Source: Pseudidiomarina tainanensis (lineage in GTDB: Bacteria; Pseudomonadota; Gammaproteobacteria; Enterobacterales; Alteromonadaceae). From it: DNA of 64,000 nt. The notes under the pieces are model-generated. The model did not search any database. It saw only the letters and a program-made list of their open reading frames with translations, and was not told where the DNA came from. The stretch's first letter is position 1. The number at the start of each line of letters is the position of its first letter. A program made the translations under genes and the position numbers. This document shows positions 9,966 to 34,004 of this stretch, piece by piece. The DNA lies in contig NZ_PIQJ01000001.1 in the NCBI RefSeq assembly GCF_004214835.1, positions 744,001 through 808,000 of the forward strand, written 5' to 3'.

Positions 9966-10016
9966 GTTGTATGCTCTTTAACAATTCATCCATCGCTATC
10001 TGACAGGGTTTGATTG

Positions 10017-11228: not shown

Positions 11229-12244
11229 TGTCACGTGCATTTAACGTAGCTGTACTTGGTGCAACCGGATTGGTTGGTCAACACATGATTGAAATTCTTG
11301 AAGCGCGGGATTTCCCAGTCGCTCAACTGTTTCCATTAGCAAGTAGCCGCTCGGCCGGCTCAACGGTTACGTTCCGTGGCGAAGAAATCACGGTAGAAGA
11401 CGCTGAAACCTTTGATTGGAGTCAAGTTGAGCTTGGTTTTTTCTCGGCCGGCGGAAATATTTCACGAATTTATGCGCCGCGAGCTGCGGATGCTGGTTGC
11501 GTGGTTATCGATAACACCTCGGAATTTCGCTATGAGCCCGATATCCCGTTGGTTGTGCCAGAGGTAAATGCTCACGCACTGGCTGACTTTCGTAACCGCA
11601 ACATTATCGCCAACCCAAATTGCTCAACCATTCAAATGCTTGTGGCACTCAAACCGATTCACGATGCGGTAGGTATTGACCGGATAAACGTTGCAACGTA
11701 CCAGTCAACCTCGGGCGCCGGTAAAGAAGCGATGGACGAATTGGCACAGCAAACAGCAGCGCTATTAAATGGACGCCCAGTTGAAGTCGAGCGGTTTAGC
11801 CGTCAAATCGCCTTCAACTGTATTCCACAGATTGATGTGTTTCTAGATAACGATTACACCAAAGAAGAAATGAAGATGGTGTGGGAAACACAAAAAATCT
11901 TTGGGGATGAAAGCATTCGGGTGAATGCAACCGCTGTGCGTGTGCCGGTGTTTTTTGGTCATGCAGAGGCGATACATATTGAAACATTACAACCGATTGA
12001 TGCGGTACAGGCGAAGGAGCTGCTGCGTCACGCACCGGGTGTTGTCTTGTTTGATAATAACGATGATTTTCCGACACAAATAGGTAACGCTGCCGGACAT
12101 GATGAAGTTTTTGTAGGACGCGTGCGTAACGATATTTCTCATCCACAGGGCTTAAACTTGTGGGTCGTAGCCGATAATGTACGCAAAGGCGCCGCGACAA
12201 ATAGTATTCAGATTGCAGAACACTTAATTCGCGACTATATGTAA
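11228..12244 (+). CDS. asd: Aspartate-semialdehyde dehydrogenase family protein (usg position)
   Basis: NADP-dependent enzyme reducing aspartyl phosphate to aspartate semialdehyde, a branch point for Lys, Met and Thr. The nucleotide loop is GATGLVGQHM, the catalytic Cys is Cys132 in NPNCSTIQM, and YQSTSGAGKEA plus PVFFGHAEAIH supply the expected Gln and His regions. The start is the ATG at 11228 with AGGAG before it; a longer in-frame reading from 11153 runs back into pdxB. This locus holds usg in E. coli. The intact catalytic residues favour a working dehydrogenase, but another copy elsewhere cannot be excluded. Confidence 0.85.
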   Translation: MSRAFNVAVLGATGLVGQHMIEILEARDFPVAQLFPLASSRSAGSTVTFRGEEITVEDAETFDWSQVELGFFSAGGNISRIYAPRAADAGCVVIDNTSEFRYEPDIPLVVPEVNAHALADFRNRNIIANPNCSTIQMLVALKPIHDAVGIDRINVATYQSTSGAGKEAMDELAQQTAALLNGRPVEVERFSRQIAFNCIPQIDVFLDNDYTKEEMKMVWETQKIFGDESIRVNATAVRVPVFFGHAEAIHIETLQPIDAVQAKELLRHAPGVVLFDNNDDFPTQIGNAAGHDEVFVGRVRNDISHPQGLNLWVVADNVRKGAATNSIQIAEHLIRDYM

Positions 12245-12307
12245 AACTATCCATCTTTCAATGCGGTACCGATAATTACAACGATTACAAAAGAGGGAAC
12301 CAGCTCA

Positions 12308-14362
12308 ATGAAACGGAATAGCTTGGCACTGGCTGCCGGAATAGCACTGGCACTCGGCTCGTCAGCAGTCGTGACTGCGGACGCGAGTTTTGTGAATACA
12401 AGTGCGGCGGCTATGCTGCAAGGTCAGGCCACCTCAAGATGGCAGCCTGATCGATTTGGTCCAATCGTTTCATCCGACACCTTATGGTCTATCGCCATGT
12501 ACTATGGTGACAAAACGGACTTGTCGGTTTATGAAATGATGGACTTGTTCATTGAGCTAAACCCTGAAGCTTTCATCAACGGTCGCGCTGATCGGATGAT
12601 GGATGGCTATTACCTTAAGGTTCCTGAAATTGCTCAGCGAACCCGAACAGAAACAGCTGTAGTTGCGACTGAATCAGCAACGCCTCAAACGACCACCGAA
12701 GATAGTTCTGTCGCTGCAGTAGCTGTCGATGAAGCTACTGATGTGGTTGAGAGCGTTCCAGCAAAAGCTGATGCCTCGAACCGTGTTGCTACCGAAACTA
12801 GTGTTGAGTTTGATGTAGCAGAACTTACTCAATTACGTACCCAATTGGCTGAATCGATTTCATTGATTGAGCGCTTAAACAGCGAAAATAGTCAGTTACA
12901 AGATCGTCTTGATTCAGTAACCGCGGAGCTTGAGCAGTTGCGGTTGAAGGTTAATGCCGAACAAGTGGCCGAAGATGAACTACAAGACCAGATTGCTGCA
13001 GAAATTGTCGCGACCCGAGTTGAAGCTGGTGAAACGGCTTCGGTAGCAAGCGAAACTCCAGTCGAGACCGTTGCCGCAACACCAGAACCAGAAGCAACAC
13101 CGGTGGAACAACCGGTTGCGTCACAGCCAACTGAAGCAGAGGCTTCAAGCACTACAGTGACTGAATCGGCTACTAAAGAGAAAGTTGCCGAGCCGAAAGC
13201 TGCTGAACCGAAGCCTGTGAAGCGTAAGCAGCAATCTGAATATCAGGAATTTATTGACTGGTTATTACAACCGTTCCAATTGGCCTTGGCAATTCTGATT
13301 CCATTGCTACTTGCCGCCATTATTTGGTACGTGCTGTATGTTCGCCGGTTGAATCGTGAAACGCTGGGTCCGTATAACGGTGCTATGCAAGCCGCTGAGC
13401 AAGAGCAACAGCAAGAACAGGGTGAAGCAGAAGAGAAACTAAGCGCTTATGAGGAAGCTGAGCAAGCCGCTCTGGCCGAAGAAGCGGCTGATATGCCTGA
13501 GTTTGAGCGTTTAGACGAAGATGAAGAAGTGGTTGCGGAAGCAGACGAAGAAGAGGCTCCGGAAACGCTAGAAGATGAACTATCCGCACTAGATGATGCA
13601 GAAGATGAATTTGAGACGATTGATGAAACCGTTGATGACGAAGCGGATCTGGATACACTGCTAGCGAGTAGTTTCGATGAGCCTGAAGCTGAAGCTGAGA
13701 GCGAGATTGAGACCGAAATTCAACCAGATAAAGAGGTTGAGGTAGACCTTGAAGCAGAAAGCGATTTATCGGAAGAGGTGCAACCGGAGGAAGCTACTGC
13801 AGATGATGATTTATCGTTAGAGTTCGATGCAACGCCAGTAGCTCCTGAACAGTCGCAGGCTGAAACGAAGCCAACTGAGCCCGCAACAGCTGACGATGAT
13901 GAAATGAGCTTAGACTTTCATATCGATGATGCCGCAACTGAAGTTGATGCGCCAGCGACCGATGAAACGCCTGTAACGGATTTAGAAGTCGAACTGGAGC
14001 AGTTCGAAGATGTCGACTTAGCTGATATCGATCTTGAAGCATTAAGTGCTGAAACAGAAACTAAATCAGAAGCAGAAGACGACACTGACGATGGTTCATT
14101 TTTAGAAATTGATGCGCTGCTTGAAGAGGCTGAATCAGCAGAATCGGATTACGACAGTCCTCGTTTTGAGCGTGAGTCAGGTCAAGTTGATGATAACGAA
14201 GAAACACCTTCGGGAATGATTGATCTAGCCCGTGCATACTTAGAAATGGATGAGTATGAGCTGGCGCGTTCGGAGCTTGAAAAGGTTGCACAAACCGATG
14301 ACGAAGACGCAAAACGTGAAGCGGCAATGTTATTGCAAAAGATTGAAGAACAGGGACATTAA
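12308..14362 (+). CDS. fimV: FimV/HubP-like polar hub protein
   Basis: Inner-membrane protein with a periplasmic LysM region and a highly acidic cytoplasmic tail. In Pseudomonas and Vibrio relatives it organises cell-pole and type IV pilus or flagellar functions. Seen here: a signal peptide ([20 protein letters not shown]), a LysM-like stretch ([13 protein letters not shown]) at residues 57-69, a coiled coil ([16 protein letters not shown]) and one membrane span near 320-345. A long Asp/Glu-rich region follows, then the C-terminal FimV repeat ([20 protein letters not shown]). At 684 residues it is shorter than P. aeruginosa FimV. It lies between asd and truA, and its stop overlaps the truA start. 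Confidence 0.9.
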
Positions 14363-15159
14363 TGAGTAGTACGCGCATTGCGCTGGGTATTGAATACGAC
14401 GGCAGTCAGTATTTTGGGTGGCAACGGCAACGAGAGGTTGTCTGTGTTCAAGAAGTGCTTGAGCGCGCGTTGAGTAAAGTAGCCAATCATCCGGTTGAAG
14501 TAACCTGCGCAGGGCGTACCGATGCCGGCGTACATGCCACCGGGCAAGTTGTTCACTTCGATTGCCAGTTTGAGCGGGCAATGCCCGCTTGGACCATGGG
14601 TGTGAATAGTAACTTACCGGACTCTGTAGCAGTACGCTGGGCGCGTGAAGTGCCCGAGTCATTTAATGCGCGCTTTAGTGCCACCGGTCGCCGTTATCGA
14701 TACATTATTGCCAACCAAAAAATGCGCCCAGGTATTCTTGGGCGCGGTTTAAGCCATTACCATCAACCACTAGATGCCCAACGGATGCACGAGGCGGCGC
14801 AGCACCTTATCGGAGAACATGACTTTAGCGCATTTCGAGCTGCGCAATGCCAGTCGCACTCACCGAATCGCTGCGTGACACGAATCGACGTACGCCGATT
14901 TGGCGATTTTATTGTGGTTGATATTGCTGCCAACGCATTTTTGCATCACATGGTTCGAAATATTGTTGGCAGTTTGCTCGAAGTTGGTAAAGGTGAGCAA
15001 ACCACAGCTTGGTTGGGGACTTTATTGGCCGGGCGCGATCGAACTTTAGCAGCGGCTACTGCGAAAGCCGAAGGTTTGTACTTAGTGCAAGTGGATTATC
15101 CACAAGAGTTTGATCTGCCGCAATTACCGCCTGGTCCGCTGTGGCTACCTGACTGTTAA
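14362..15159 (+). CDS. truA: tRNA pseudouridine(38-40) synthase TruA
   Basis: Isomerises uridines 38-40 in the anticodon arm of many tRNAs. The catalytic Asp is Asp54 in [19 protein letters not shown], and the N-terminal [12 protein letters not shown] and later [19 protein letters not shown] are family hallmarks. At 265 residues it is the usual length. Its ATG overlaps the fimV stop (TAATG), so it is translated from the same message. A 99-base gap with a possible promoter separates it from accD. Confidence 0.96.
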
Positions 15160-21704: not shown

Positions 21705-24338
21705 ATGGCAAAAGCGTTAGTTATTGTCGAGTCGCCCGCAAAAGCGAAGACAATTAATAAATATTTAGGGAATGATTTTGTGGTGAAGTCGAGCGTGGGT
21801 CACGTGCGCGACTTACCGACAAAATCAACCGCGACCGTCAAAACCAAGCCGCCGGCGGAAGTCCGCAAAATGTCGCCGGAGCAAAAAGAAGCCTACCGCC
21901 AAGAGCGCGAATTTCAGAAACTCGTTGCCCGTATGGGGATCGACCCGCAGCATGGCTGGGAAGCGCATTATGAAGTACTACCCGGTAAAGAAAAGGTTGT
22001 GGCTGAACTGAAGAAACTCGCAGCGAAAGCAGACGCTGTTTATCTCGCGACGGATTTGGACCGCGAAGGGGAGGCCATTGCGTGGCACCTGCGCGAACTG
22101 ATTGGTGGCGATGACAGTCGATTCCAGCGGGTGGTGTTTAACGAAATCACCAAGAAGGCCATTCAAGACGCGTTTTCGAAACCGGCAGCTTTGAATATTG
22201 ATCGGGTTAATGCGCAGCAAACGCGACGCTTCCTTGACCGTGTGGTCGGTTTCATGGTGTCGCCGTTGTTGTGGAAGAAAATAGCACGTGGCTTGTCAGC
22301 TGGCCGGGTGCAATCGGTTGCAGTGCGATTAGTGGTTGAGCGTGAGCGCGAGATTAAAGCATTTGTGCCTGAAGAATATTGGGACATTTACGCCGATTTA
22401 GCGACACAAAATAAAGATGAATTGCGTATGCAGGTGCAAAAGCACCTCGGCAAGACCTTTAAAGCGAACGATAAGGCAGCTGCCGACGCCGCTGTGGCTA
22501 CATTGAAGGGTGCCCAATACAAAGTCATTGATCGCGAAGATAAACCGACTAGCAGCCGTCCCTCGGCGCCATTCATTACGTCAACCTTGCAGCAAGCCGC
22601 GAGCACGCGGTTGGGCTTCGGGGTGAAAAAGACGATGATGTTGGCACAGCGCTTGTACGAAGCCGGTCATATTACCTACATGCGTACCGACTCAACGAAC
22701 TTGAGCCAAGAGGCTGTCGCGAACTGTCGTGACTACATTGGCAAGAACTATGGCGCAGATTATTTGCCAGCGAAACCGAATGTTTACGGCTCGAAGCAAA
22801 ACGCCCAAGAAGCGCACGAAGCGATTCGTCCTTCTAGTGTCGGCGTGAAGTCTGAAAGCTTGCGTGATATGGAACGCGATGCGCAGCGTTTATACGAATT
22901 AATTTGGCGTCAATTTGTGGCGTGTCAAATGACGCCTGCACAATACGATGCCACCACCATTTCAGTGCAAGCCGCAGATTACGAACTCCGTGCACGTGGT
23001 CGAGTATTGCGCTTCCCGGGCTGGACCAAAGTACAACCACCGGCTGGCTCGAAGAATAGCGAAGATGCAACGTTGCCAGACGTGAAAACCGGTGAAATAT
23101 TAGCGTTGCAGCAACTTGACCCGCAACAGCACTTCACTAAACCGCCAGCGCGTTTCAGTGAAGCATCGTTGGTCAAAGAGCTTGAAAAGCGCGGCATTGG
23201 CCGTCCTTCAACCTACGCTTCGATTATTTCAACCATTCAAGACCGTGGCTATGTGCGCGTTGACAGTCGCCGCTTTTACGCCGAGAAAATGGGTGAAATC
23301 GTTAATGATCGCTTGGTCGATAACTTCCCGCGTTTGTTGAACTACAGCTTCACTGCTGAAATGGAGCAGGCGCTGGATGAAATCGCTGAAGGTAAACGGA
23401 ACTGGAAAGCAACGCTAGACAAGTTCTACGAAGATTTCAGTGCGAAATTGCAACAAGCAGAGATGCCCCCTGAAGAAGGCGGCATGCGTCCGAACCAAAT
23501 GGTGCTGACCGACATTAAATGTCCGAAGTGCGGTCGCCCGATGGGTATTCGCACCGCGTCAACGGGTGTGTTCTTGGGTTGTTCAGGTTACGAATTGCCG
23601 CCAAAAGAGCGCTGCACACAAACTATGAACCTGTTGCCAGGTGAAGAAGCGGTGCGCGTTAAAGATGACGACGATGAAGCGGAAACCATAGCATTGCGGG
23701 CGAAAAAACGTTGCCCGAAATGTGGCACCGCGATGGATAGCTACTTGATTGACCAAGAGCGCAAGCTTCACGTGTGCGGTAACAATCCAGCATGTGACGG
23801 CTTTGTGGTTGAACAGGGCGAGTTCCGCATTAAAGGTTACGATGGTCCGATACTTGAATGTGACCGTTGTGGCAGTGAGATGCAGCTCAAAACGGGCCGT
23901 TTTGGTAAGTATTTTGACTGTACTAACAGCGAGTGCAAAAACACCCGTAAGCTGTTGAAAAACGGTCAACCGGCGCCACCAAAAGAAGATCCTGTGCCGT
24001 TCCCTGAGCTACCGTGTGAAGACTCAAACGCCTATTTTGTTTTGCGCGATGGCGCTTCAGGTGTGTTCTTGTCAGCAAATACCTTCCCGCGATCACGTGA
24101 AACTCGAGCGGTGAAAGTGAGCGAGCTGAAACGCTTTAAAGATCGCATTCCAAGCAAGTTTCATTATTTAACCGAAGCGCCTGAAAAAGACGATGACGGC
24201 AACGAAGCCATTGTACGTTACAGCCGCAAAAACAAAGAACAGTACGTGATTACCGAAGTAAACGGGAAAGCTACAGGCTGGCAAGCGTTCTACCGCGACG
24301 GTGAATGGGAAGTTCAAGAAGGTAAAAAACGTAAGTGA
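21705..24338 (+). CDS. topA: DNA topoisomerase I
   Basis: Type IA topoisomerase that relaxes negative supercoils. The Toprim domain opens with [33 protein letters not shown] gives the acidic metal site and Tyr325 in [10 protein letters not shown] is the catalytic tyrosine. Three four-Cys zinc ribbons follow in the C-terminal part ([27 protein letters not shown]). It is 877 residues, like the E. coli enzyme (865). The ribosome site is AGAG before the ATG. A separate 93-residue reading from 21476 overlaps its start and looks spurious. Confidence 0.97.
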
Positions 24339-24343
24339 TAATC

Positions 24344-24359
24344 GGCGCAGCAATGCGCC
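24344..24359 (+). other. GNRA-type hairpin just after topA
   Basis: Perfect 6-base stem GGCGCA/TGCGCC closed by GCAA, a GNRA tetraloop, 5 bases after the topA stop. There is no T tract, so it is more likely a 3'-end stabiliser or processing element than a simple terminator. Confidence 0.5.
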
Positions 24360-24405
24360 ATCTCCGCCTTGTTAGCCGCCCATAGCTGGGCTAGATTAAA
24401 AGTCT

Positions 24406-24423
24406 ACTGCGAAGGATCGCAGT
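24406..24423 (+). promoter_or_regulatory. Inverted repeat before the pilus operon
   Basis: Perfect 7-base arms ACTGCGA and TCGCAGT around AGGA. It sits 22 bases before the first pilus ATG, just upstream of the AAGGAGG ribosome site. It may act as an operator or as a leader hairpin; it has no T run. Confidence 0.45.
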
Positions 24424-24445
24424 GTGAGGTTAACAAGGAGGTTTT

Positions 24446-24916
24446 ATGGTTGTTAAACCATGTCGGACGTCAGTCCATCGGTACGTCATCGCAAGCAGCT
24501 TAGCGCTGAGCTGCTTGTGGTCGACGTCAGTATTTGCAACGTCATGTCCGGTTTACCAATTTTCTGGTGTTACTGCGCTCACGCAACAGCAAACGCAACG
24601 ACAAACAGAGCCAGAAACTCGCCAAGCCAAACAGCAACCTGCAAGAATGACCGATAGTCGTGCGAGCCAATTGGTATTGCATGAAGGTTTATTGCAGCCG
24701 CAACTAGAACAATTCCTGCGTAAAGAGTTTGCCGTCGAAACGATAGACTGGCGTGTATCTCCTCATTATCAATGGCCGACCAATTTCACCCTTAAAGCAA
24801 GCAATGCCGAGGCATTGTTAGAGCAAATTCTGGCGCCTTATACCTTTGTTGTCACGATGTTCGCTAATCATGCAGCGATTGTCAGTTATCGTTATGAGGT
24901 TGCGGAGGCGCTATGA
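24446..24916 (+). CDS. TcpQ/PilL-like pilus protein, first gene of the type IVb pilus locus
   Basis: 156-residue exported protein. Residues 1-33 look like a signal peptide (long hydrophobic run YVIASSLALSCLWSTSVFA). A Gln-rich linker follows, and about 85 C-terminal residues (LHEGLLQPQLEQFLRK, WRVSPHYQWP, LEQILAPYTF) resemble the TcpQ domain found in PilL of R64-type pili, thought to partner the secretin. The assignment rests on this faint resemblance plus position. A very strong ribosome site AAGGAGG precedes the ATG. The stop overlaps the secretin start as ATGA. Whether it is lipidated is unclear: ATSC is a poor lipobox. Confidence 0.6.
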   Translation: MVVKPCRTSVHRYVIASSLALSCLWSTSVFATSCPVYQFSGVTALTQQQTQRQTEPETRQAKQQPARMTDSRASQLVLHEGLLQPQLEQFLRKEFAVETIDWRVSPHYQWPTNFTLKASNAEALLEQILAPYTFVVTMFANHAAIVSYRYEVAEAL

Positions 24917-26394
24917 AAGCACACCACGTCGTTGCTTTGCTCTGTTTCGGGCTTAGTAGCTGTTCTAGCTCTCAGCAGTTGGATCTGCAGCAACAGCACG
25001 AGCAAGCAAGTCAGCGGTTAGCAATTCTGCAAGAATTAGAGCCCGAGTCGGAGCATGTTCGTTTTAAGCAACAGCTCTATGTTCCGCCGTTGTCGCGAAG
25101 TACAGCGCGTTTGCCGGCATGGAGTGCCCAGCCGGTGACACTTTCAGCCCAAGGTTTAGCAGCTGGAACATTAATATCCAAAGCATTAGAACCGCATGGT
25201 GTTGTGCCGTATTTCGATAGTGAAACGTTAGCGCAACAACCGGTGCATATGCAGTTTTCCGGTTCGCTTGCTGAGCTATTGCAACGTATGGCGAGTCGTT
25301 ATCGATGGCATTTGGAGTGGCGGGATGAGCTCCTATTTATTCGCGAATTTGAAGTGGCCGAGTTCGATGTCGCGTTTATTGCCGGAGATACCAGTTACTT
25401 TTTAGGGAGCCGAGATCAACAACAACAAGGGCAAGCAGCTGCATCTGATTTTGCTCAAGCAAATGTCGTTACTCGACAAAGCGAACAATATCTAAATTTT
25501 AGTAATGAGAAGCTATCCGTTTGGGCTGATTTAGAACAAGCACTAAGTTTGCTGTTATCCGAGGAAGGTCGGTTGACGGTTAATCAGAGCTCGACATCGG
25601 TGCTAGTGCGCGACTATCCACATCATGTAGCTCAGGTGAAAAATTATCTACAACAACAAAATGAACGGTTGACGCGTCAAGTCGCCATTGATGTACAAAT
25701 TTTAGAAGTCACATTCAATGACACGCAGCAGTTTGCGATTGACTGGGATGCGGTTCTTAAAACAGCAGGTGGTGAGGGTGTTTTAGGATTTGCCTCGGCA
25801 CAACTCAGTGCGCTCAGCGGTGGTCAGGTTTTATGGCAGCAACAACAAGGACGAGCTGCTGGCTCTCAGATATTAATCGACGCATTGCAGCAACAAGGAC
25901 TCGTTCAGATCAGTAACCACCCTCGTATTGTCAGTTTAAATAATCAGATAGCGCGAATTGTTCTCGAAGATAATGCAACTTATCTTGCCGCAGCAGGCTC
26001 GGCTGCAACAGCCAACGTGGGACGCGCTGATGTATTGCAACCAGGTGTCGTTACCACCGGTTTTGAATTGTATTTATTGCCAAATATTCGTGCCAACGAA
26101 GTGATTCTGCAGTTATCAACTGAGCTCTCTGATCTGGAGCGAATTGATGAGGTTCGCTCTGGCACTCAGATGATTCAAACACCGCATACCAATCGTAAAA
26201 AGTTTTTTATGAAGGCGCTGGTTGCACATGATCAAACGCTGTTAATGAGTGGCCTTAAAAACCAACGTAATGCCGCCTTAAAACAGCAAAGCTGGTGGAG
26301 CTTGCTACTTGGTGGGCGCAATGAACAGCAACAACGCCACAGTGAGACATTGGTATTGCTTACACCTCATATCATTAGTCGAGAGGTGCGCTAA
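24913..26394 (+). CDS. pilN: Type IVb pilus secretin lipoprotein (PilN-like)
   Basis: Outer-membrane secretin through which the pilus would exit. A lipobox LSSC gives a lipidated Cys17. An N-domain lies at about 70-160 (TLISKALEPHGVVPYFDSE). The secretin core covers about residues 255-493, starting RQVAIDVQILEVTFND and ending SETLVLLTPHIISREV, with the conserved late segment ALVAHDQTLLMSGLKN. At 493 residues with a lipoprotein signal it fits the PilN/BfpB/TcpC class rather than PilQ or MshL. It overlaps its upstream neighbour by ATGA and the next gene by one base. Confidence 0.88.
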   Translation: MKAHHVVALLCFGLSSCSSSQQLDLQQQHEQASQRLAILQELEPESEHVRFKQQLYVPPLSRSTARLPAWSAQPVTLSAQGLAAGTLISKALEPHGVVPYFDSETLAQQPVHMQFSGSLAELLQRMASRYRWHLEWRDELLFIREFEVAEFDVAFIAGDTSYFLGSRDQQQQGQAAASDFAQANVVTRQSEQYLNFSNEKLSVWADLEQALSLLLSEEGRLTVNQSSTSVLVRDYPHHVAQVKNYLQQQNERLTRQVAIDVQILEVTFNDTQQFAIDWDAVLKTAGGEGVLGFASAQLSALSGGQVLWQQQQGRAAGSQILIDALQQQGLVQISNHPRIVSLNNQIARIVLEDNATYLAAAGSAATANVGRADVLQPGVVTTGFELYLLPNIRANEVILQLSTELSDLERIDEVRSGTQMIQTPHTNRKKFFMKALVAHDQTLLMSGLKNQRNAALKQQSWWSLLLGGRNEQQQRHSETLVLLTPHIISREVR

Positions 26395-27533
26395 TGATTG
26401 ATTGGTGTGTGACAGCTTGGCGACAACAATCATCGCAACGCGATCAAATTCTTACTTGGCTTGCAGAAGCTAGAAGACTTGGATTTGAACAGTATGGCTT
26501 GGTGAAGCAAGGCAATCATTATTGGCTCTGTTGCTGTAATTACGCGAAATCTGATCTCGCTATACATGTACGAGACCACGTTAGATTGAGTAAAGCGGTG
26601 TTTGTGCAGTTGGAAGGGAATCAACTTATTTGTGTCGCCTGGAACGGCGATACGTTGCTTGGAGCCAGTCAATTTAACGCGGATGCACTGGGTATCAAAA
26701 GTCTTACTACAATTGCCAAACATTGGTTTTCAACTGATGGGATGAGTTGCCCTTTGGTATTCGGGGGGGCTCATTCACGACAAATTTTAGAAACAGTAAT
26801 TAGCGCCGACATCATCGTCAAAGATATGCCTGAAATTGACTTTAGCTCATGTTCACGGCGTGCCAGATTACGTTCGATTCGCCGGTCACCTATTTGGTTG
26901 AGGCGTCGTGTGATTATTATCGCGATGATTTTTGCGCTAATCAGTGCGGTCATTACGAGTTGGGTATATTGGCCAGCACAAGTAAAGGTCGCGACAGCGC
27001 CAAAGCCGACAATAGTTAAACCGGTAGAACATCTTAGACCGCACTGGTCGCCGAGCCACTTGCGCCACCTAAACGATTTGCTTGCCAGTGTGAGTTATTT
27101 AGCCGGCTGGCAGGTTCAACGTTGGCAACTTTCTGAATTCGGCGAGGAACTATGGCTTCAGTCTACTTATGGTTCACAGCAAGATTTATTTGCTCAACTT
27201 CCAAATGCTGCAGATTGGCGTTTGCGCAGAAGTGGTAACGCGGTTTATGTGGAACGCGAACTACCAACGGTGCAGAGCCAAGCGCTGAGTCGCAATGCTG
27301 TTGCAGTAAATTTAGAGCAATTTGATTTTGTGATAACTCGTAGCGAATCTGGACTGAAAATAGAACATGCTGCGTTTGATCCAACTGATGCAAACCAATG
27401 GGACGCATTGTTGAACTGGTTAATTCAACATGCTGATTCGACTCAATTAGTCTCAGCCGAGGCTGAGGCGAGCGGTTATTTTTGGTCACTATCACTACAA
27501 CTTGAGCAGATTTCGCAAGGAGCGCGATTATGA
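26394..27533 (+). CDS. pilO: PilO-like inner-membrane pilus accessory protein
   Basis: 379-residue bitopic protein. Residues 1-170 form a cytoplasmic domain, a basic stretch (RRARLRSIRRSPIWLRRR) leads into one membrane span at about 173-193, and a periplasmic domain of some 180 residues follows. This matches the layout of R64 PilO, proposed to link the ATPase complex to the periplasmic parts. Sequence identity to any member looks low, so the name rests on architecture and on position between secretin and PilP-like genes. Oddities are a CCC run at residues 46-48 and further Cys in the cytoplasmic half. Start overlaps the secretin stop by one base; the end overlaps pilP by ATGA. Confidence 0.72.
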   Translation: MIDWCVTAWRQQSSQRDQILTWLAEARRLGFEQYGLVKQGNHYWLCCCNYAKSDLAIHVRDHVRLSKAVFVQLEGNQLICVAWNGDTLLGASQFNADALGIKSLTTIAKHWFSTDGMSCPLVFGGAHSRQILETVISADIIVKDMPEIDFSSCSRRARLRSIRRSPIWLRRRVIIIAMIFALISAVITSWVYWPAQVKVATAPKPTIVKPVEHLRPHWSPSHLRHLNDLLASVSYLAGWQVQRWQLSEFGEELWLQSTYGSQQDLFAQLPNAADWRLRRSGNAVYVERELPTVQSQALSRNAVAVNLEQFDFVITRSESGLKIEHAAFDPTDANQWDALLNWLIQHADSTQLVSAEAEASGYFWSLSLQLEQISQGARL

Positions 27534-27937
27534 TTTGGACACTTTCTGTTCTGTTAGCTACGACTGCTACATTCGATAGCAACGATACTATCCAAAAGCT
27601 AAGAATAAGTGAGCTTAAGGAACGGCTCGCTCAAACTGAAGCAAAACGGTTGCAACTTGAACTGCAAATCGCCAAAGCAAAACATGCCATCGATGAATTG
27701 AATCCCGCACCTGAGGAAAAATCAGAGATTGCCGATGAGTTAGCGCGTTATCAGTTAGTGGGAATCGTTGCGATTGCAGACAAAACTCATGTGGTTTTGC
27801 GCAAAGGCGATGAATTGATTCGTTTGCTGAATGGCGTGCAAGGTGCCATGAGTCTTATCGCGGAAGTACAACCAGGCAAGGTAAGAATTTCTCGGTTTGG
27901 GCATTTTCGCGATTTACCACTGACAGAACGGTGGTAG
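27530..27937 (+). CDS. pilP: PilP-like pilus biogenesis protein
   Basis: Small 135-residue protein with a short hydrophobic N-terminus (MIWTLSVLLATTATF), a coiled coil over about 20-65 (ISELKERLAQTEAKRLQLEL) and a compact beta domain (YQLVGIVAIADKTHVVLRKG). This is the R64 PilP plan and resembles the T2SS GspC homology region that contacts the secretin N-domains. It most likely sits in the periplasm between PilO-like and secretin proteins. It overlaps pilO by four bases, and its stop is two bases before the next ATG. Confidence 0.75.
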   Translation: MIWTLSVLLATTATFDSNDTIQKLRISELKERLAQTEAKRLQLELQIAKAKHAIDELNPAPEEKSEIADELARYQLVGIVAIADKTHVVLRKGDELIRLLNGVQGAMSLIAEVQPGKVRISRFGHFRDLPLTERW

Positions 27938-27939
27938 GT

Positions 27940-29328
27940 ATGTATCAATTGAACGATGAAACGCTCACTGGTTTATCAGCGAGTCAAACGAGTCTCTCGC
28001 TGTGCTCCGCCGTCAGCGATCAGTACATGCAAGATGATGTCGCGGTATTGATAAGTGTTGAGGGTGCTCTTATCGCGAGCTTGCCGGCATGGCAACATCA
28101 CTTTATGACCTTGATGAATATTGTGACGCAAGCGAATCTTAACGGTGAAGTCGTTACACAATGGTGTCTTGCTAATGCTCGTTCGATTCGCAATTTATTG
28201 CATGATGCCACCGCCCATGAACTGCAGTCGGCACATGTTGAAACCGTTGAGCTGGATCACACCCGCGCACAGCAATCATTGGAAGATCTAGTGCAGCAGG
28301 CCTTGGTTTTGCAGGCATCGGATATTCACCTACTTTTTTCTCCAACACATGCGGCGCTATCGTTTCGTGTACATGGTCGTTTGGTTGGCAAGGTTGAGCG
28401 TAACCGAGAGTCGATGGCGGGGGCTATTGCCGCCGCGTTGAATACGCGCTCTGAGGATTTTCATGAGCTATTTGATGAGCAACGCTTATCGAGTGCCAGT
28501 ATTTCCTTGTCGGTATTAGACAACGATAGCTTTCAGCGTATTCGCTTGCGTGTACAGAAGTCACCCACTCGCAATGGCTTTGCGGTAACTATGCGCTTGC
28601 AGCGAGAGCAGAGCAAAATATTGCGCTTACACGAACTTGGCTTAAGTGCGGATGTTGTTAATCGACTCCAAGCCATTTTGAGAGAACCATCCGGACTATT
28701 GATTATTGCTGGGCCAACAGGACAGGGGAAAACAACTACTTTGGCAGCTTTAAACGCCGAAATACCGACAACTGCAAAGGTCATTTCGTTAGAGGACCCA
28801 ATTGAAATCATTCAGCCTCAGATTGAGCAAAAACCCGTTATTGCGGAACATCATGAGCTGAACTTTGCGAATATGGTAAAAGTCGCCTTGCGTGAAGATC
28901 CCGATGTGATTTCAATAAGCGAAATTCGTGATGAGGCAACAGCCAAAGCTGCTTTCACCGCAGCGTTAACTGGGCATTTGGTAACTGCAACGGTGCATGC
29001 TCACGATACATTTGGTGTGTTAAGTCGATTACTCGATCTCGGGCTATCACCAGAATCATTAGCGCAGTTTGGCGTTGTGCGGGGAATTTTGGCGCAACGA
29101 TTAGTTGCGAATATTTGTATCGATTGCGAAGGCACCGATCGTGGCTGCCCGCGTTGCCATGGGGTAGGAGTTATCGGGCGTCGCATTGTCAGTGAGTATT
29201 TACCCATTGACAATAATATTCGACAAGCATTACTAGCAAAGCAGTTTGAAAATTGTCGCAGCGAACTCATAGCGCAGGGCTGGCAGACACTTGATGAGCA
29301 ATTATTAGGTGCTCAAGAATGCATTTGA
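27940..29328 (+). CDS. pilQ: Type IVb pilus assembly ATPase (PilQ/GspE family)
   Basis: Cytoplasmic hexameric ATPase powering pilus extension. Numbered from ATG 27940: Walker A GPTGQGKTTT at 258-267, Asp box SLEDPIE, Walker B region REDPDVISISEIRD around 318-331, and His box GHLVTATVHAHD. A compact zinc site has Cys393, Cys396, Cys403 and Cys406 (CIDC and CPRC). The usual Gly before the Walker B Glu (GEIRD) is Ser here. An overlapping GTG at 27931 is an alternative start with no better ribosome site. The symbol follows the R64 scheme, where PilQ is the ATPase and not the secretin. No retraction ATPase is encoded nearby. Confidence 0.88.
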   Translation: MYQLNDETLTGLSASQTSLSLCSAVSDQYMQDDVAVLISVEGALIASLPAWQHHFMTLMNIVTQANLNGEVVTQWCLANARSIRNLLHDATAHELQSAHVETVELDHTRAQQSLEDLVQQALVLQASDIHLLFSPTHAALSFRVHGRLVGKVERNRESMAGAIAAALNTRSEDFHELFDEQRLSSASISLSVLDNDSFQRIRLRVQKSPTRNGFAVTMRLQREQSKILRLHELGLSADVVNRLQAILREPSGLLIIAGPTGQGKTTTLAALNAEIPTTAKVISLEDPIEIIQPQIEQKPVIAEHHELNFANMVKVALREDPDVISISEIRDEATAKAAFTAALTGHLVTATVHAHDTFGVLSRLLDLGLSPESLAQFGVVRGILAQRLVANICIDCEGTDRGCPRCHGVGVIGRRIVSEYLPIDNNIRQALLAKQFENCRSELIAQGWQTLDEQLLGAQECI

Positions 29329-30341
29329 GTAGACAACGTCAATTAGCATTTCTTGAAGATTTCGCCCTCGCCTTAGGTGATGGGTTAAGTCCATTACAGT
29401 GTTGCCAAGACCTTTTAGTGAATGCACGTAAACTTAGATTACGCCAAGAAGAATTGATTGCTGCTCACTTAATCCGGCAGCTTAGTCACGGCCGAGCACT
29501 CGGAACATCCCTACAAGAATGGTTTGCTCATGATCTCGTTATGTTGGTTGCGGTTGGTGAAAATAGTGGGGTATTAGAGCAACTATTACAGCAACATCGA
29601 CTTTTTGAAGTGGAGCGACAGGCAGCTTGGCGCGAGTTTTGGAAACCTCTGCTGTATCCAATTGCGATGATGATTTTAGCATTTGGCGCTAGTTTATTTA
29701 TCGGGCGCGGAGTCATTCCAAAACTAGCTAAATCGCTACCTAAATCTGATTGGCCGGAATTGAGCCAGTGGCTGTTGGTTTTGACGCATAGTCTTTGGCT
29801 ACCAATTTTGGTGAGTGGCGTGATCATCATATTTATTCTTGTTTGGGGACCGCCAGGGGTTATTCGTTTCAAATGGTCTTGGTGTCGTTGGCTAGCAGGT
29901 TGCGGCGCGTTCATGATTCAGCGTTACTTCCATGCGGTCTTACTTCTGCAGACGCTAACCGTTCTCCTCCAATCAGGAAGTAATCTTGATAAATCGTTGG
30001 CCGCTATGCAACGTTACGGTAGTCAAGAGCTCAACTATTATTTTAGTTTTATGCGCCAGCAGCTTGCCGAAGGAGAGAGAAAATTAGAGCGAATTTTTGC
30101 AAGTGGATTACTCTCGCCGCGTATGCTCTTTCGCTTGGGTAATGGTAGCCGTAATGCGACGGAGCACGGCACTCTATTGCGTGTTGCAGGTTATGCTTCT
30201 CGTGATGCTTTGCAGGCCTTAAGGCGGTTGCGAAGTGCTTTACAAGCTTTTTGTTACAGCCTTATTTTTGCTTTGTTGATTATTGTGCTTGGAGGTATGG
30301 GCAGCATGTTAATGGCAATAACACAACAAAGTATCGTTTGA
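29319..30341 (+). CDS. pilR: Polytopic inner-membrane pilus assembly protein (PilR/GspF family)
   Basis: Platform protein that couples the ATPase to pilin insertion. It has two GspF-type cytoplasmic domains. The first is residues 1-105 (FLEDFALALGDGLSPLQC, ENSGVLEQLLQ) and the second about 185-305 (VLLQSGSNLDKSLAAM, GNGSRNATEHGTLL). Membrane spans are at about 110-130, 150-175 and 310-334. It is 340 residues, typical for the family. Its ATG lies 10 bases inside the end of the ATPase gene, so the two are translationally coupled. Confidence 0.85.
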   Translation: MHLSRQRQLAFLEDFALALGDGLSPLQCCQDLLVNARKLRLRQEELIAAHLIRQLSHGRALGTSLQEWFAHDLVMLVAVGENSGVLEQLLQQHRLFEVERQAAWREFWKPLLYPIAMMILAFGASLFIGRGVIPKLAKSLPKSDWPELSQWLLVLTHSLWLPILVSGVIIIFILVWGPPGVIRFKWSWCRWLAGCGAFMIQRYFHAVLLLQTLTVLLQSGSNLDKSLAAMQRYGSQELNYYFSFMRQQLAEGERKLERIFASGLLSPRMLFRLGNGSRNATEHGTLLRVAGYASRDALQALRRLRSALQAFCYSLIFALLIIVLGGMGSMLMAITQQSIV

Positions 30342-30385
30342 CCTATAACTTTTAAATTTTTTCACAAAACAACGGAGTGTTAATT

Positions 30386-30826
30386 ATGCAATCTCAAAAA
30401 GGATTTACTTTTATCGAAGTGCTGACGGTACTTTCAATTATTGCGCTTGCCACCATTGGTTCATTGGCCTTACGAGACTGGGCGGTGGGCAACTCGCGCA
30501 TTAGCGAGGCCAAAAGTCAGATTATTACTATTCAATCTGGCGCCCAGCTTTGGCGCCCTCGAACCGGTGACTTAACCGGTATTAGCATGAGTGCAATGTC
30601 TAGTATTGCGGCTGTACCTGAAATTTGGGGAGCAGGGAGCAGCATTAACCCCTGGGGCGGTGATATCGCAATTGCTGTTGATGGCACCGATACGTCGGTT
30701 TATGTCATTACTGTAAGCGGTATTGAGCAAGCTGCAGAGGGCGCTCGTTTAGCTTATGACTTTACTGATTATGCGATTTCTAGCACCTTCTCCGGTGATA
30801 CATTAACACTGCGTTTTCAAGGATAG
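30386..30826 (+). CDS. pilS: Major type IVb pilin (PilS-like)
   Basis: 146-residue prepilin, start chosen at ATG 30386 with GGAG 8 bases ahead. The six-residue leader MQSQKG is cut before FTFIE, giving Gly-1 and Glu+5, then a hydrophobic alpha-1 helix to about residue 32. The globular part (GAQLWRPRTGDLTGIS, AVPEIWGAGSSINPWGG) resembles the PilS/bundlin-type pilin domain, in which NPWGG is recurrent. The leader is short and +1 is Phe, as in type IVa pilins. There is no Cys at all, so the disulfide-bounded D-region of most type IV pilins is missing. A 44-base gap before it, the largest within the cluster, may hold its own promoter. Confidence 0.85.
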   Translation: MQSQKGFTFIEVLTVLSIIALATIGSLALRDWAVGNSRISEAKSQIITIQSGAQLWRPRTGDLTGISMSAMSSIAAVPEIWGAGSSINPWGGDIAIAVDGTDTSVYVITVSGIEQAAEGARLAYDFTDYAISSTFSGDTLTLRFQG

Positions 30827-31048
30827 ATGACTGTGAAGTGGGTCAAGTCGCGCGGATTTATGCTGCTGGAATCGACCGTTGGCATAGCTATTCTGGCGGT
30901 GTTTATAGCGAGTATGGGGGTGATGCTTCCCAGTTTAAACACCGCAATTAAGTCGTATGACAACGGTGCATGGATTAATCATCGTTTGATAAAACAAAGA
31001 TTAGACACGCAACTTTCTCAGTATCACAAGTTTGCAGATGCAATGTAG
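30827..31048 (+). CDS. Very short prepilin-like protein
   Basis: 73 residues, starting at the ATG directly after the pilin stop. Leader MTVKWVKSRG ends in Gly and is followed by FMLLE, so Gly-1 and Glu+5 are present, then one hydrophobic helix (TVGIAILAVFIASMGVML) and only about 40 further residues. After cleavage the product would be 63 residues, essentially a pilin alpha-1 helix with a short tail and no room for a normal globular head. It may be an initiator or capping minor pilin. I know no named family for it. Confidence 0.75.
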   Translation: MTVKWVKSRGFMLLESTVGIAILAVFIASMGVMLPSLNTAIKSYDNGAWINHRLIKQRLDTQLSQYHKFADAM

Positions 31049-31066
31049 ATACTGCATGGAGGCATT

Positions 31067-31786
31067 ATGAGACAACAAGGATTTGTCATGCTCGAGGTAA
31101 TTACGGCGGTGGTGATTGTTAGCTCTTTATTATTAATGATTAATCAAGCATGGTTGTTCAAATCATCGCAGCAACAGCGGCAGGGATGGCTTGTAGACGC
31201 CGAGCAAGTCAACCTTGCGGCTAGTGATTTTTGGGCCGAAAACGGTGCACCCCCGGCTACCACTCGTGATCTCTTTACTGAACAAGAGCTCGCTATATTG
31301 CGTTTCCCATGGCATCAAGAATGGCAGTTTACGCTTGGAGAAAATTGGCTTGAATTAAGTGTTAGCGCCCCCTCATTAGATCAGGCGCAATGGTTCGTGC
31401 GACAGATTGCGGGAGCATTCGTTCGTGGCAACGAGGTTGTTATGCCGGTGTGGCAGCCGCGTCCGAGTAATGCCACCAATGAAGATTATTTGCATCGATT
31501 AGAACAAACTGATGCCCCTCATCTTAATACAATGGCAACCGACTTAGATATGGGCCAATTCGATATTATTGACATCAATAATTTAGATACCCAACGGCTA
31601 ACCGTCGAGACTATCAGAGCTGATGAATTAGAGGCAACGTCAGTGAAAACGACAGAACTAATTGTCACAACAGTCTATGCTCAGGACGTTATTACACCCA
31701 CAACAAGTTTACAGGAAGTATCAGATCGACTTGCTGAATATATTCAACTGTGGAAGCAATGTGAACTTCAAGGCAAATGCAGTTAG
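31067..31786 (+). CDS. PilV-like minor pilin with repeat fibre C-terminus
   Basis: 239 residues. The 5-residue leader MRQQG is cut before FVMLE (Gly-1, Glu+5), followed by a membrane helix and a globular region to about 150. A linker (LNTMATDLDMGQ) recalls PilV tip adhesins. Residues 165-214 are five consecutive 10-residue units with hydrophobics in matching positions, suggesting a beta-solenoid or tail-fibre-like stalk. An amphipathic helix and a C-terminal Cys pair (CELQGKC) end the protein. GGAGG precedes the ATG. No recombination sites or alternative 3' cassettes follow, so there is no shufflon. Tip location is inference. Confidence 0.7.
   Translation: MRQQGFVMLEVITAVVIVSSLLLMINQAWLFKSSQQQRQGWLVDAEQVNLAASDFWAENGAPPATTRDLFTEQELAILRFPWHQEWQFTLGENWLELSVSAPSLDQAQWFVRQIAGAFVRGNEVVMPVWQPRPSNATNEDYLHRLEQTDAPHLNTMATDLDMGQFDIIDINNLDTQRLTVETIRADELEATSVKTTELIVTTVYAQDVITPTTSLQEVSDRLAEYIQLWKQCELQGKCS
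31559..31708 (+). repeat. Five 10-residue coding repeats in the PilV-like pilin
   Basis: Units FDIIDINNLD, TQRLTVETIR, ADELEATSVK, TTELIVTTVY and AQDVITPTTS align with Ile/Leu/Val at positions 4 and 9 in most units. The repeat is at protein level; the DNA copies have diverged. Confidence 0.6.
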
Positions 31787-32477
31787 AAAAAGTCGGTATC
31801 ATGCGTATCAATGTGGCGCTGTCTCTGTAGAAGCTTTGATTATTTTGCCATTAATAACTTGGCTGATTATCGCAAGTCTGCAACTTGTTTGGATTTTCTG
31901 GGCGCAACATACATTGCATCAAACAAGCCACTACGTGCTACGTGCAGGACAAATACAACACGGTAGTAAAAGCAAAATGTTGAATGTGTTGGCAACCGGT
32001 ATGGCGAGCACTAAATTGCAATGGCATGATAAAGACTCAACTACTGAGCTAGAAAGCTTAAGAGAACACGTATGGAAAGCGACATTAGAGACTTTAATCC
32101 ATGCAAAACTCGCCGCTAAAATTATTGTTCACAGCCCTGATGATGCTGCGTTTAAAAATTATTCTGAGCGGCGCTTTGATCTGAGATTAAACAACTGGGT
32201 GACTGAAGTTTCAATTGATCATGCTATTGAGCGAGCTAAAAACAGCGACGATCCAGCAGCTTGGCTTGACGCACGTCAGCTTGATATTGAAATTTGGTGG
32301 TGTTTGCCACTTGAGATACCTTTTGTTGCAAGTGCATTACAAAACTGGCATCAGTTGATGAATAGCGAAGCGCAGCGTTTTTGCCGATTGCGTGAGACGA
32401 TTATTGGCAAACCGCTCTGGCCCCTGATAACGCGGCGTAAAGGACCGATGCTATCAGGGTTTAGAACAACAGAGTAG
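31761..32477 (+). CDS. TadE-like pseudopilin ending the pilus cluster
   Basis: 238 residues from the GTG at 31761, which has GGAAG 4 bases before it and overlaps the PilV-like gene by 26 bases. Longer readings from ATG 31677 or TTG 31662 lack a good ribosome site. The basic leader ends in Gly (residues 1-19), followed by AVSVEALIILPLITWLII, which is the TadE signature and also keeps Gly-1/Glu+5. Then comes a long hydrophilic domain with three Cys. TadE proteins belong to Tad/Flp pili, so its place in a PilL-PilV type cluster is unusual. The gene ends 5 bases before the folD stop. Confidence 0.72.
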   Translation: MNFKANAVRKSRYHAYQCGAVSVEALIILPLITWLIIASLQLVWIFWAQHTLHQTSHYVLRAGQIQHGSKSKMLNVLATGMASTKLQWHDKDSTTELESLREHVWKATLETLIHAKLAAKIIVHSPDDAAFKNYSERRFDLRLNNWVTEVSIDHAIERAKNSDDPAAWLDARQLDIEIWWCLPLEIPFVASALQNWHQLMNSEAQRFCRLRETIIGKPLWPLITRRKGPMLSGFRTTE

Positions 32478-32482
32478 AGAGC

Positions 32483-33346
32483 TTACTTTAAAGGCGCGTG
32501 CCAAGTATCACACGCCTGCAAGGTATTCTGCATGAGTGTGGCTACGGTCATTGGGCCAACACCGCCTGGTACTGGCGTTATGTACGATGCGCGTTGCTCT
32601 GCAGCATCAAATTCAATATCACCAACGAGTTTTCCAGAAGGCAAACGGTTAATACCGACATCAATCACAACGGCGCCAGGTTTTACCCACTCGCCAGGAA
32701 TAAAGTTGGGCTTACCAACAGCAACCACAAGCACATCAGCGCCTTGCACGTGTTCTTTAAGGTCATTGGTGAAGCGGTGACAAACGGTTGTAGTGGCACC
32801 GGCAAGCAATAATTCCAAACTCATGGGACGACCGACGATATTGGAAGCACCAACGACCACGGCGTTTTTACCGTGTAAGTCTAAGCCAATGGAATCGAGT
32901 AGGGTGATGACACCGCGCGGCGTACATGGGCGTAATGCGGGATTCCGCTGCGCTAAGCGGCCCATGTTGAACGGGTGGAAACCGTCAACGTCTTTAAATG
33001 GATTAATGCGCTCGAGAATCGCTTGAGCGTCCAAGCCTTGAGGTAACGGCAATTGCACCAAAATGCCATCGACTTCGGCATCTTCATTCAACTGGTCAAT
33101 GAGTGCTTCTAGTTCAGCTTGGCTTGTGCTTGCTGGTAAATCGAAAGCTTTAGAGACAATACCAACTTCTTTACAGGCGTTACGCTTACTGCCAACGTAT
33201 ACAGCTGAGGCTGGGTCTTCGCCGACCATGACAACGGCAAGCCCGGGTGCACGAGCTCCGGCGGCAAGGCGTTTGGCAACTCCTTGTTTTACTTCATCAC
33301 GAACTTGTTGAGCTACTTGTTTACCATCAATACGTTGCGCAGTCAT
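32483..33346 (-). CDS. folD: Bifunctional methylenetetrahydrofolate dehydrogenase/cyclohydrolase
   Basis: Interconverts 5,10-methylene-, methenyl- and 10-formyl-tetrahydrofolate with NADP. Signature blocks are present: [20 protein letters not shown] with the catalytic Lys, [12 protein letters not shown], the NADP loop [13 protein letters not shown] and the end [15 protein letters not shown] (here [15 protein letters not shown]). I start at ATG 33346 (MTAQRIDGK), the family start, rather than GTG 33358. The product is 287 residues. It converges on the pilus cluster with only 5 bases between stops and no visible terminator. Confidence 0.97.
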
Positions 33347-33445
33347 TGCTTTGAGCACCTTATTCGGTTGAATGCTGATATGTCGAGTTCATGGGCTGCT
33401 ATTTTCGCATGTTTTTTGCTAAGGTTGTAGCGTCTATTCAGGGGG

Positions 33446-33476
33446 GACTGAAATACAAAATGAATAAATTTCAGTC
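33446..33476. repeat. Inverted repeat upstream of folD and the tRNA operon
   Basis: Perfect 9-base arms GACTGAAAT and ATTTCAGTC separated by 13 bases. A further CAGTCAG copy lies about 25 bases downstream. It could be an operator for folD or part of an unrecognised transcript. Confidence 0.45.
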
Positions 33477-33523
33477 AGCCTGTTGGTATTTTCAGCAGTC
33501 AGACATTTTGGGCAAAAAAATGT

Positions 33524-33552
33524 TTGACGCGTTACGGCCCAACAGGTAATAT
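33524..33552 (+). promoter_or_regulatory. Strong sigma-70 promoter of the tRNA operon
   Basis: TTGACG and TAATAT separated by exactly 17 bases. A GC-rich discriminator (TCGCCCCCG) follows, the pattern of stringently controlled stable RNA promoters. First tRNA begins about 60 bases downstream. Confidence 0.75.
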
Positions 33553-33611
33553 TCGCCCCCGTTGTCAGGCCGCGTCCTGCACGGGATTTTAAAGACTTAT
33601 AAGAAGTATGT

Positions 33612-33688
33612 CGGCGAGTAGCGCAGCTTGGTAGCGCACTTGTTTTGGGTACAAGGGGTCGCTGGTTCGAATCCAGTCTCGCCGACCA
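33612..33688 (+). tRNA. tRNA-Pro (anticodon TGG)
   Basis: 77 bases with encoded CCA. Acceptor CGGCGAG pairs with CTCGCCG; anticodon arm CTTGT-TTTGGGT-ACAAG places TGG at 33646-33648; the T arm contains GGTTCGAATCC. Identical copy at 33928. Confidence 0.97.
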
Positions 33689-33707
33689 TTTCTTAAAAGT
33701 GCGAATT

Positions 33708-33784
<77 letters not shown>

Positions 33785-33812
33785 TTAAAGCCCTGGCACA
33801 ATTTATGAAGTG

Positions 33813-33888
33813 GTGGCTGTAGCTCAGTTGGTAGAGCCCCGGATTGTGATTCCGGTTGTCGTGGGTTCAAGTCCCATCAGCCACCCCA
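33813..33888 (+). tRNA. tRNA-His (anticodon GTG)
   Basis: 76 bases with encoded CCA. Acceptor GTGGCTG pairs with CAGCCAC; anticodon loop TTGTGAT gives GTG. A G at 33812 faces discriminator C and supplies the extra G-1 characteristic of tRNA-His. Confidence 0.97.
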
Positions 33889-33927
33889 TTTCTCTGCTTT
33901 ATCAGCAACATTTCAAAATTCTGAAGT

Positions 33928-34004
33928 CGGCGAGTAGCGCAGCTTGGTAGCGCACTTGTTTTGGGTACAAGGGGTCGCTGGTTCGAATCCAGTCTCGCCG
34001 ACCA
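33928..34004 (+). tRNA. tRNA-Pro (anticodon TGG), second copy
   Basis: Identical over its 77 bases to the tRNA-Pro at 33612. It closes the four-gene array. No T-rich terminator is obvious immediately after it. Confidence 0.97.

What the first reader, a model, noticed from the sequence alone, without database searches (positions are those of the whole stretch)
24446..32477. Chromosomal R64/PilL-PilV-type IVb pilus locus between topA and folD
Ten contiguous, mostly overlapping genes encode a TcpQ-domain protein, secretin lipoprotein, PilO-, PilP-, ATPase and GspF-type proteins, then four prepilin-like proteins. Core order matches the thin-pilus genes of IncI plasmids and the Yersinia pil island. 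Here it sits in a housekeeping region with no integrase, transfer genes, repeats or tRNA insertion site. It is neither MSHA nor the common IVa set. It may be a resident adhesion, twitching or DNA-uptake pilus not described for this lineage. Order and motifs are seen; the function is inferred.
Basis: partly seen in the sequence, partly recalled or inferred. Interest (0 to 1): 0.8.

Follow-up and report, generated by a model that had tools for sequence, protein, structure and literature searches.

The report
Domesticated plasmid-type thin-pilus gene cluster
A marine bacterium's chromosome carries a ten-gene cluster for a thin surface pilus of the kind usually found on plasmids; its close relatives keep it, and one related lineage has lost the pilus genes but kept the outer-membrane gate, which suggests the gate has a use of its own.

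Summary

The locus is in 26 of 26 same-genus genomes. Secretin and ATPase trees put the clade near pili on Alteromonas and Glaciecola plasmids; R64 lies farther off. Reading: a plasmid-type thin pilus that became a fixed chromosomal trait. It differs from R64 by a short IVa-like prepilin leader, an unusually conserved pilin, no peptidase or transglycosylase in the operon, and a TadE-like tenth gene.

In Aliidiomarina, 17 of 17 genomes keep the secretin, 12 of 17 the ATPase. The five without it form one clade (100/100 on flanking genes; 14 of 17 genomes in the tree) and keep only gene 1, secretin and the TadE-like gene, apparently under purifying selection. That pilus-less trio is the most interesting part. 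Function, most likely adhesion, is inferred.

The parts
24446..24916 (+). gene 1: exported protein with a weak STN (secretin N0-like) match; inferred TcpQ/BfpG-like secretin partner
   Evidence: ORF; orthologues in A1; Pfam STN in 5 of 21 orthologues, best 2e-4, not in the window copy; TcpQ in 0 of 21
24913..26394 (+). gene 2: PilN-type secretin, probable lipoprotein (invariant Cys17)
   Evidence: TIGR02520 4e-62, 210 bits, below its 288-bit cut-off; MshL 9e-29; Cys17 invariant in 19 of 19
26394..27533 (+). gene 3: PilO2/BfpC-type inner-membrane protein (actin-like cytoplasmic domain, one TM helix, periplasmic alpha/beta domains)
27530..27937 (+). gene 4: PilP-like periplasmic protein, by position
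   Evidence: alignment A7; no family match over cut-off; weak A7-profile match to the Glaciecola plasmid counterpart, 1.5e-4
27931..29328 (+). gene 5: assembly ATPase (counterpart of R64 PilQ; GspE/PilB superfamily), GTG start, four-Cys motif
   Evidence: T2SSE 1e-68; tree; Cys396/399/406/409 invariant in 14 of 14
29319..30341 (+). gene 6: GspF/PilR-type platform protein
   Evidence: T2SSF 1e-11; A8
30386..30826 (+). gene 7: major-pilin candidate, 6-aa leader, +1 Phe, 140-aa mature part, no Cys, NPWGG motif
   Evidence: N_methyl 19 of 19, PilS 8 of 19 (best 5e-5), Bundlin 6 of 19; start by eye
30827..31048 (+). gene 8: mini prepilin-like protein (73 aa)
   Evidence: a lenient motif script found a prepilin-like short ORF here in 19 of 27 loci examined, one of them a plasmid
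31067..31786 (+). gene 9: PilV-like minor pilin, inferred tip adhesin, with stem motif LN.M.TDLDM and terminal CxxxxxGxC-type end; no shufflon
   Evidence: hhalign to Methylovorus PilV E 8e-10; Shufflon_N in 8 of 19 orthologues, best 7e-7; in the window copy only E 0.11; terminal Gly236 and Cys238 invariant
31758..32477 (+). gene 10: TadE-like prepilin with cysteine-bearing C-terminal domain (WWC.PL.VP ... FC)
   Evidence: TadE 3e-5, 24.5 bits against cut-off 22.9; Gly -1 and Glu +5 invariant in 22 of 22; AlphaFold pLDDT 90; start by eye
21705..24338 (+). topA, left flank
   Evidence: 97% identical to P. marina; name by eye
32483..33358 (-). folD, right flank, convergent
   Evidence: 97% identical to P. 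marina; name by eye

Best explanation
The cluster makes a thin type IVb-like pilus. Gene 1 and the lipoprotein secretin form the outer-membrane port; PilO2 (gene 3) and PilP (gene 4) link the port to the ATPase (gene 5) and platform (gene 6); the single prepilin peptidase found elsewhere in the genome cuts the prepilins (genes 7-10); the 140-aa pilin forms the shaft; PilV (gene 9) is the tip adhesin. It derives from the thin-pilus operon of a plasmid or similar element, fixed in an ancestor of Idiomarina, Pseudidiomarina, Aliidiomarina and genus g28, and now most likely serves cell-cell or surface attachment. Shown: gene identities (genes 2, 3, 5, 6, 7, 9, 10), order, conservation, tree position, low dN/dS in the pairs measured. 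Inferred: roles of genes 1, 4 and 8, assembly, tip role, attachment, direction plasmid to chromosome.
For: PilN is the best secretin model. PilO2Bp/BfpC fold of gene 3. PilV stem homology, hhalign E 8e-10. Core order shared with Methylovorus pMsip01 pil and R64 pil. In the ATPase tree the family clade groups with Glaciecola and Alteromonas plasmid pili and g40 (94/96); in the secretin tree they are neighbours at an unresolved fork. The Alteromonas plasmid locus lies beside a DotD/TraH lipoprotein and a conjugative-transfer-family protein. Five secretins in the genome, one prepilin peptidase, elsewhere. dN/dS 0.024-0.15 for nine locus genes in the pair L039-L043 (gene 8 not computed; topA 0.011). 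PilV adhesion in IncI plasmids: PMC9045228 (abstract and passages).
Against: No function has been tested. The TIGR02520 score is below its curated cut-off. PF06864 and TcpQ match no orthologue scanned; gene 1 against one TcpQ-family protein and gene 3 against one PilO2 gave no sequence match, and gene 7 against one PilS matched only the N-terminal helix. The pilin leader is IVa-like. The Glaciecola, Alteromonas and Shewanella plasmids are typed 'non-mobilizable' by PLSDB, though Glaciecola's carries an MPF_I call. Support for the plasmid group in the secretin tree is weak (84/52), several rows are long-branched, and the Shewanella plasmid moves between trees. Direction of transfer is not proved.
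Confidence: 0.75

Rival explanations
1. The essential device is the gate, not the pilus: gene 1, the secretin and the TadE-like prepilin form an outer-membrane port whose own job (export or uptake) is the main one even where the pilus genes are present.
For: 17 of 17 Aliidiomarina genomes keep the secretin, 12 of 17 the ATPase. The five without it form one clade, 100/100 on TopA+AstB+FolD+PurF, with 14 of the 17 genomes in the tree. Four fetched stretches run topA, gene 1, secretin, gene 10, folD; the MAG locus L051 shows topA, gene 1, secretin, gene 10 and then the contig ends. Pilin profile: no orthologue in the five reduced genomes (one 4e-4 match in G238, 127-aa frame, taken as a paralogue). 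A. soli/A. sedimenti dN/dS: gene 1 0.15, secretin 0.09, gene 10 0.08 (topA 0.006, folD 0.027).
Against: The pilus parts are kept in all 26 same-genus genomes and the ATPase in 12 of 17 Aliidiomarina. No substrate is known. The trio could borrow a T2SS- or Tad-like motor, which the reduced genomes keep (by size and place). A very divergent ATPase elsewhere is not excluded. Only one pair of reduced species was close enough for a full dN/dS comparison.
Confidence: 0.15
2. DNA-uptake or twitching pilus.
For: PilT/PilU-sized ATPases exist elsewhere in the genome (by size and place).
Against: No retraction ATPase in the locus; PilQ- and PilB-sized proteins of another system exist; a PilV-like protein is present. 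Competence genes were not tested.
Confidence: 0.08
3. MSHA, T2SS or common T4aP locus misread.
For: Secretin, ATPase and GspF proteins are shared by all these systems.
Against: Four other secretins in the genome; PilN model 110 bits over MshL; PilO2 fold; PilV stem.
Confidence: 0.01
4. Decaying remnant of a mobile element.
For: P. marina gene 3 is split into two ORFs.
Against: Kept across the genus; dN/dS well below 1 for the nine genes measured in L039-L043.
Confidence: 0.01

Closest known systems
R64 (IncI1) thin pilus, pilI-pilV
   Same: Order PilN-PilO-PilP-ATPase-GspF-pilin-...-PilV; PilO2 fold by way of PilO2Bp; PilV stem by way of the Methylovorus PilV, and a weak gene 9 profile match in R64 itself (2e-8)
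   Different: No PilM, transglycosylase, prepilin peptidase or shufflon recognised in the locus; extra mini-prepilin and TadE-like gene; short-leader pilin; no gene 7 profile match in R64; R64 falls in another branch of both trees
pil loci on Alteromonadales plasmids (Glaciecola pGLAAG01, Alteromonas MRG65-300)
   Same: Closest grouping in the ATPase tree, together with g40; profile matches to gene 1, secretin, ATPase, GspF, pilin and PilV in both
   Different: On plasmids; the Alteromonas copy stands beside DotD/TraH-type genes; longer PilV-like proteins; no gene 10 profile match
Tad pilus minor pilins TadE/TadF
   Same: Gene 10 matches PF07811 over its N-terminal helix
   Different: C-terminal domain has no credible PDB match; sits in a type IVb-like operon; the genome has another, Tad-sized secretin beside a CpaF-sized ATPase
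TCP/BFP/CS21 type IVb pili
   Same: Secretin plus small partner (TcpQ/BfpG/LngC, PMC4971541 passages); BfpC-like gene 3
   Different: Gene 1 does not match the TcpQ family; no direct comparison of the other genes was made

Membership tests
R64-type type IVb pilus | PilN/BfpB-type secretin lipoprotein | tested here: met
   Best model TIGR02520, 210 bits, though under its 288-bit cut-off; invariant Cys17; on the PilN side of the tree, away from the two other own secretins included
R64-type type IVb pilus | PilO2 with actin-like cytoplasmic domain | tested here: met
R64-type type IVb pilus | PilV minor pilin with shufflon-type stem | tested here: met
   window copy itself only E 0.11
R64-type type IVb pilus | Shufflon and recombinase | tested here: not met
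   no inverted repeats of 18 nt or more in 24300-33700; none of the ten genes matches a recombinase
R64-type type IVb pilus | Own prepilin peptidase (PilU) and lytic transglycosylase (PilT) in the operon | tested here: not met
   one peptidase in the genome, elsewhere; no such gene among the ten
R64-type type IVb pilus | TcpQ/PilL-type secretin partner | tested here: inconclusive
   TcpQ 0 of 21, STN 5 of 21; no match to one TcpQ-family protein
Type IVb major pilin | Long leader, non-Phe +1, C-terminal Cys pair (leader rule in PMC10191384, passages, which adds that it does not discriminate; the rest recalled) | tested here: not met
   6-aa leader, +1 Phe, no Cys in the window; of 50 loci given, 48 had a gene 7 match (not R64, Methylovorus), 47 parsed: 45 of 47 +1 Phe, 45 of 47 no Cys; L132 not parsed, L040 misread
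Type IVb major pilin | PilS/Bundlin globular domain | tested here: inconclusive
   PilS 8 of 19, Bundlin 6 of 19, window copy neither
MSHA pilus | MshL-type secretin | tested here: not met
   another 555-aa secretin lies near a 606-aa ATPase elsewhere
TadE | TadE N-terminal domain over cut-off | tested here: met
   24.5 bits vs 22.9
R64-type type IVb pilus | Filament made and used in mating or adhesion | not testable with these tools
   needs microscopy and mutants

The most novel reading that the evidence does not exclude
Gene 1, the secretin and the TadE-like prepilin form an envelope device that can work without a pilus (alongside the pilus where both are kept). It came with a plasmid-type pilus, and one Aliidiomarina lineage discarded the pilus while selection kept the three-gene gate.
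Probability: 0.35. Interest if true: 0.75.

Novelty: new variant of a known kind. Interest (0 to 1): 0.5.

Why it matters
It looks like a plasmid-type mating-pilus operon that turned into a fixed, vertically inherited trait of a bacterial lineage, with its shaft protein held nearly as constant as a housekeeping gene. The reduced Aliidiomarina loci are a natural experiment that separates the secretin port from the pilus, so it becomes directly testable what a type IVb secretin does without a filament.

Tried and rejected

Whether the locus swaps alleles by recombination was not resolved: against P. marina the dS of the nine locus genes measured is 1.5 or more, or saturated, while topA and folD give 0.83 and 0.93.

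Not tested: expression, competence genes, PADLOC, whether a very divergent ATPase serves the trio (the g52 system's own ATPase scores no better than paralogues), wider tree sampling. The stop reported inside the G292 secretin hit is the gene's own end in L134 and was dropped as a sign of decay; the one in G672 was not looked at.
Full report
What is there. The window lies in a 2.37 Mb genome (5 contigs) of the Idiomarina/Pseudidiomarina group; the nearest named species found is P. marina (83% in the secretin; a MAG named Idiomarina sp. is at 85%). Between topA and folD, ten + strand genes overlap or lie within 40 bases of each other. By Pfam, genes 2, 5, 6, 7 and 10 are secretin, T2SSE, T2SSF, N_methyl and TadE; the other five have no match above a cut-off. 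NCBIfam puts the secretin nearest to PilN (TIGR02520, 4e-62, 210 bits, below the 288-bit cut-off), ahead of MshL (9e-29) and GspD (2e-12).

The pilin. A script was given 50 loci; 48 had a gene 7 match (R64 and Methylovorus had none) and 47 could be parsed: 45 of 47 have Phe at +1 and 45 of 47 have no Cys in the mature part; one parsed row (L040) was a misread motif. In the window the leader is 6 aa and the mature protein 140 aa. Long leaders were once the mark of type IVb pilins, but PMC10191384 (passages) says this does not discriminate. Mean column identity is 77% for gene 7 against 36% for gene 3, 29% for gene 9 and 43% for gene 10 (the gene 10 set includes three reduced loci). In the pair L039-L043 its dN/dS is 0.024, near topA's 0.011.

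Distribution. 26 of 26 same-genus genomes have the secretin, and the 25 others show the locus by folD, 24 with topA visible (gaps in detection are given under the observation check). In a family sample, 40 of 295 genomes and 7 of 52 genera match the secretin profile at 1e-70; 15 of the 40 are same-genus and I fetched the 25 others. The topA-folD site is used in the 13 Aliidiomarina (g11) and 7 g28 loci; in the five others (g34, g40, g44 twice, g52) neither topA nor folD was found in the fetched stretch. In an order sample 8 of 394 match at 1e-50, three of them in the family. In the plasmid collection 2962 records match the secretin, each below 60% identity.

Origin. In the ATPase tree the family clade groups with Glaciecola and Alteromonas plasmid pili and g40 (94/96); R64, Methylovorus and Hydrogenophaga fall in another clade. 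The secretin tree agrees broadly, with weak support (84/52) for the plasmid group and an open fork. The Alteromonas plasmid locus stands beside a DotD/TraH lipoprotein, a conjugative-transfer-family protein, an ATPase and a lytic transglycosylase. Against a simple conjugative reading, PLSDB types the Glaciecola, Alteromonas and Shewanella plasmids as non-mobilizable, though Glaciecola's has an MPF_I call. In the window genome the ATPase profile found the locus's own and six other ATPases, which by size and place belong to MSHA, T2SS, T4aP (three) and Tad, so no transfer ATPase was recognised. Plasmid-to-chromosome direction is inference.

The reduced loci. Secretin is in 17 of 17 Aliidiomarina genomes, the ATPase in 12 of 17 at 1e-60. 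Four fetched reduced loci (L123, L126, L129, L131) run topA, gene 1, secretin, gene 10, folD, the three genes abutting; in the fifth (MAG locus L051, the same genome as G670 by contig numbers and positions) the contig ends inside gene 10. In a tree of four flanking proteins with 14 of the 17 genomes, the five are one clade, 100/100, so one loss is enough; the secretin tree alone leaves G261 unresolved. The pilin profile finds no orthologue in the five reduced genomes; one 4e-4 match in G238 has a 127-aa frame and was taken as a paralogue. Between A. soli and A. sedimenti dN/dS is 0.15, 0.09 and 0.08 for the three genes, against 0.006 for topA and 0.027 for folD; the other two reduced pairs tried were too distant to measure, apart from 0.29 for gene 1 in maris-G261 at dS 2.3. 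The reduced genomes keep T2SS- and Tad-sized secretins and ATPases. So the trio seems kept under selection without its pilus parts; what it does is unknown, and borrowing a T2SS or Tad motor is not excluded.

Literature. Searches for Idiomarina or Pseudidiomarina with pili, type IVb pili with Alteromonadales (no paper) and Alteromonas with type IV pili and megaplasmids listed no paper whose title or abstract start describes this locus; of those I looked into two, a species description that mentions eleven unspecified type IV pilus genes (PMC8055624, passage) and an electrochemical study that names only a TadA pilus ATPase (PMC9230427, passage). PMC6668835 (passages) treats T4bP as a clade and does not mention Idiomarina in its main text. 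Only open-access papers were searched.

Verdict. An R64-like type IVb pilus machine, chromosomal and vertically inherited, with real departures from the type (pilin leader, TadE-like gene, no peptidase in the operon). Best filed as a new variant of a known kind; the pilus-less trio is what deserves experiments.

Noticed in passing
L119 (reverse complement 6637-14783) and L115: In genus g44 (secretin in 2 of 2 genomes) a related secretin sits with a gene-1-like protein, two small proteins at the PilO/PilP positions and a giant exported-looking protein (1669 aa coiled coil in L119, 2004 aa in L115); no ATPase or pilin of this system was found in the fetched stretches.
   Followed up: partly
L121 (reverse complement 9263-12607) and L146 14292-16604: PilV-like large proteins with what look by eye like Sec signal peptides instead of prepilin leaders (Shufflon_N 4e-13 in L121; gene 9 profile 4e-19 in L146), reminiscent of pilus-dependent secreted factors.
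   Followed up: no
L036 11482-12618: The P. marina gene 3 reading frame is split into two ORFs; sequencing error or real break not decided.
   Followed up: no
L134 14520-15253: Two small genes that look by eye like a toxin-antitoxin pair sit between gene 10 and folD in one Aliidiomarina.
   Followed up: no
L039 / L043 folD: folD dS is 0.03 between these species while the other genes compared have 0.35-0.96, suggesting recent exchange of folD.
   Followed up: no
G207, G238, G272 (Aliidiomarina sedimenti, maris, soli): These genomes show PilT- and PilU-sized ATPases but no PilB- or MshE-sized ATPase and no PilQ- or MshL-sized secretin (by size and place).
   Followed up: partly
33612-34004: tRNA cluster Pro-Arg-His-Pro next to folD; the stretches of the two Pro genes cross-match each other's place in P. 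marina and P. gelatinasegens.
   Followed up: no
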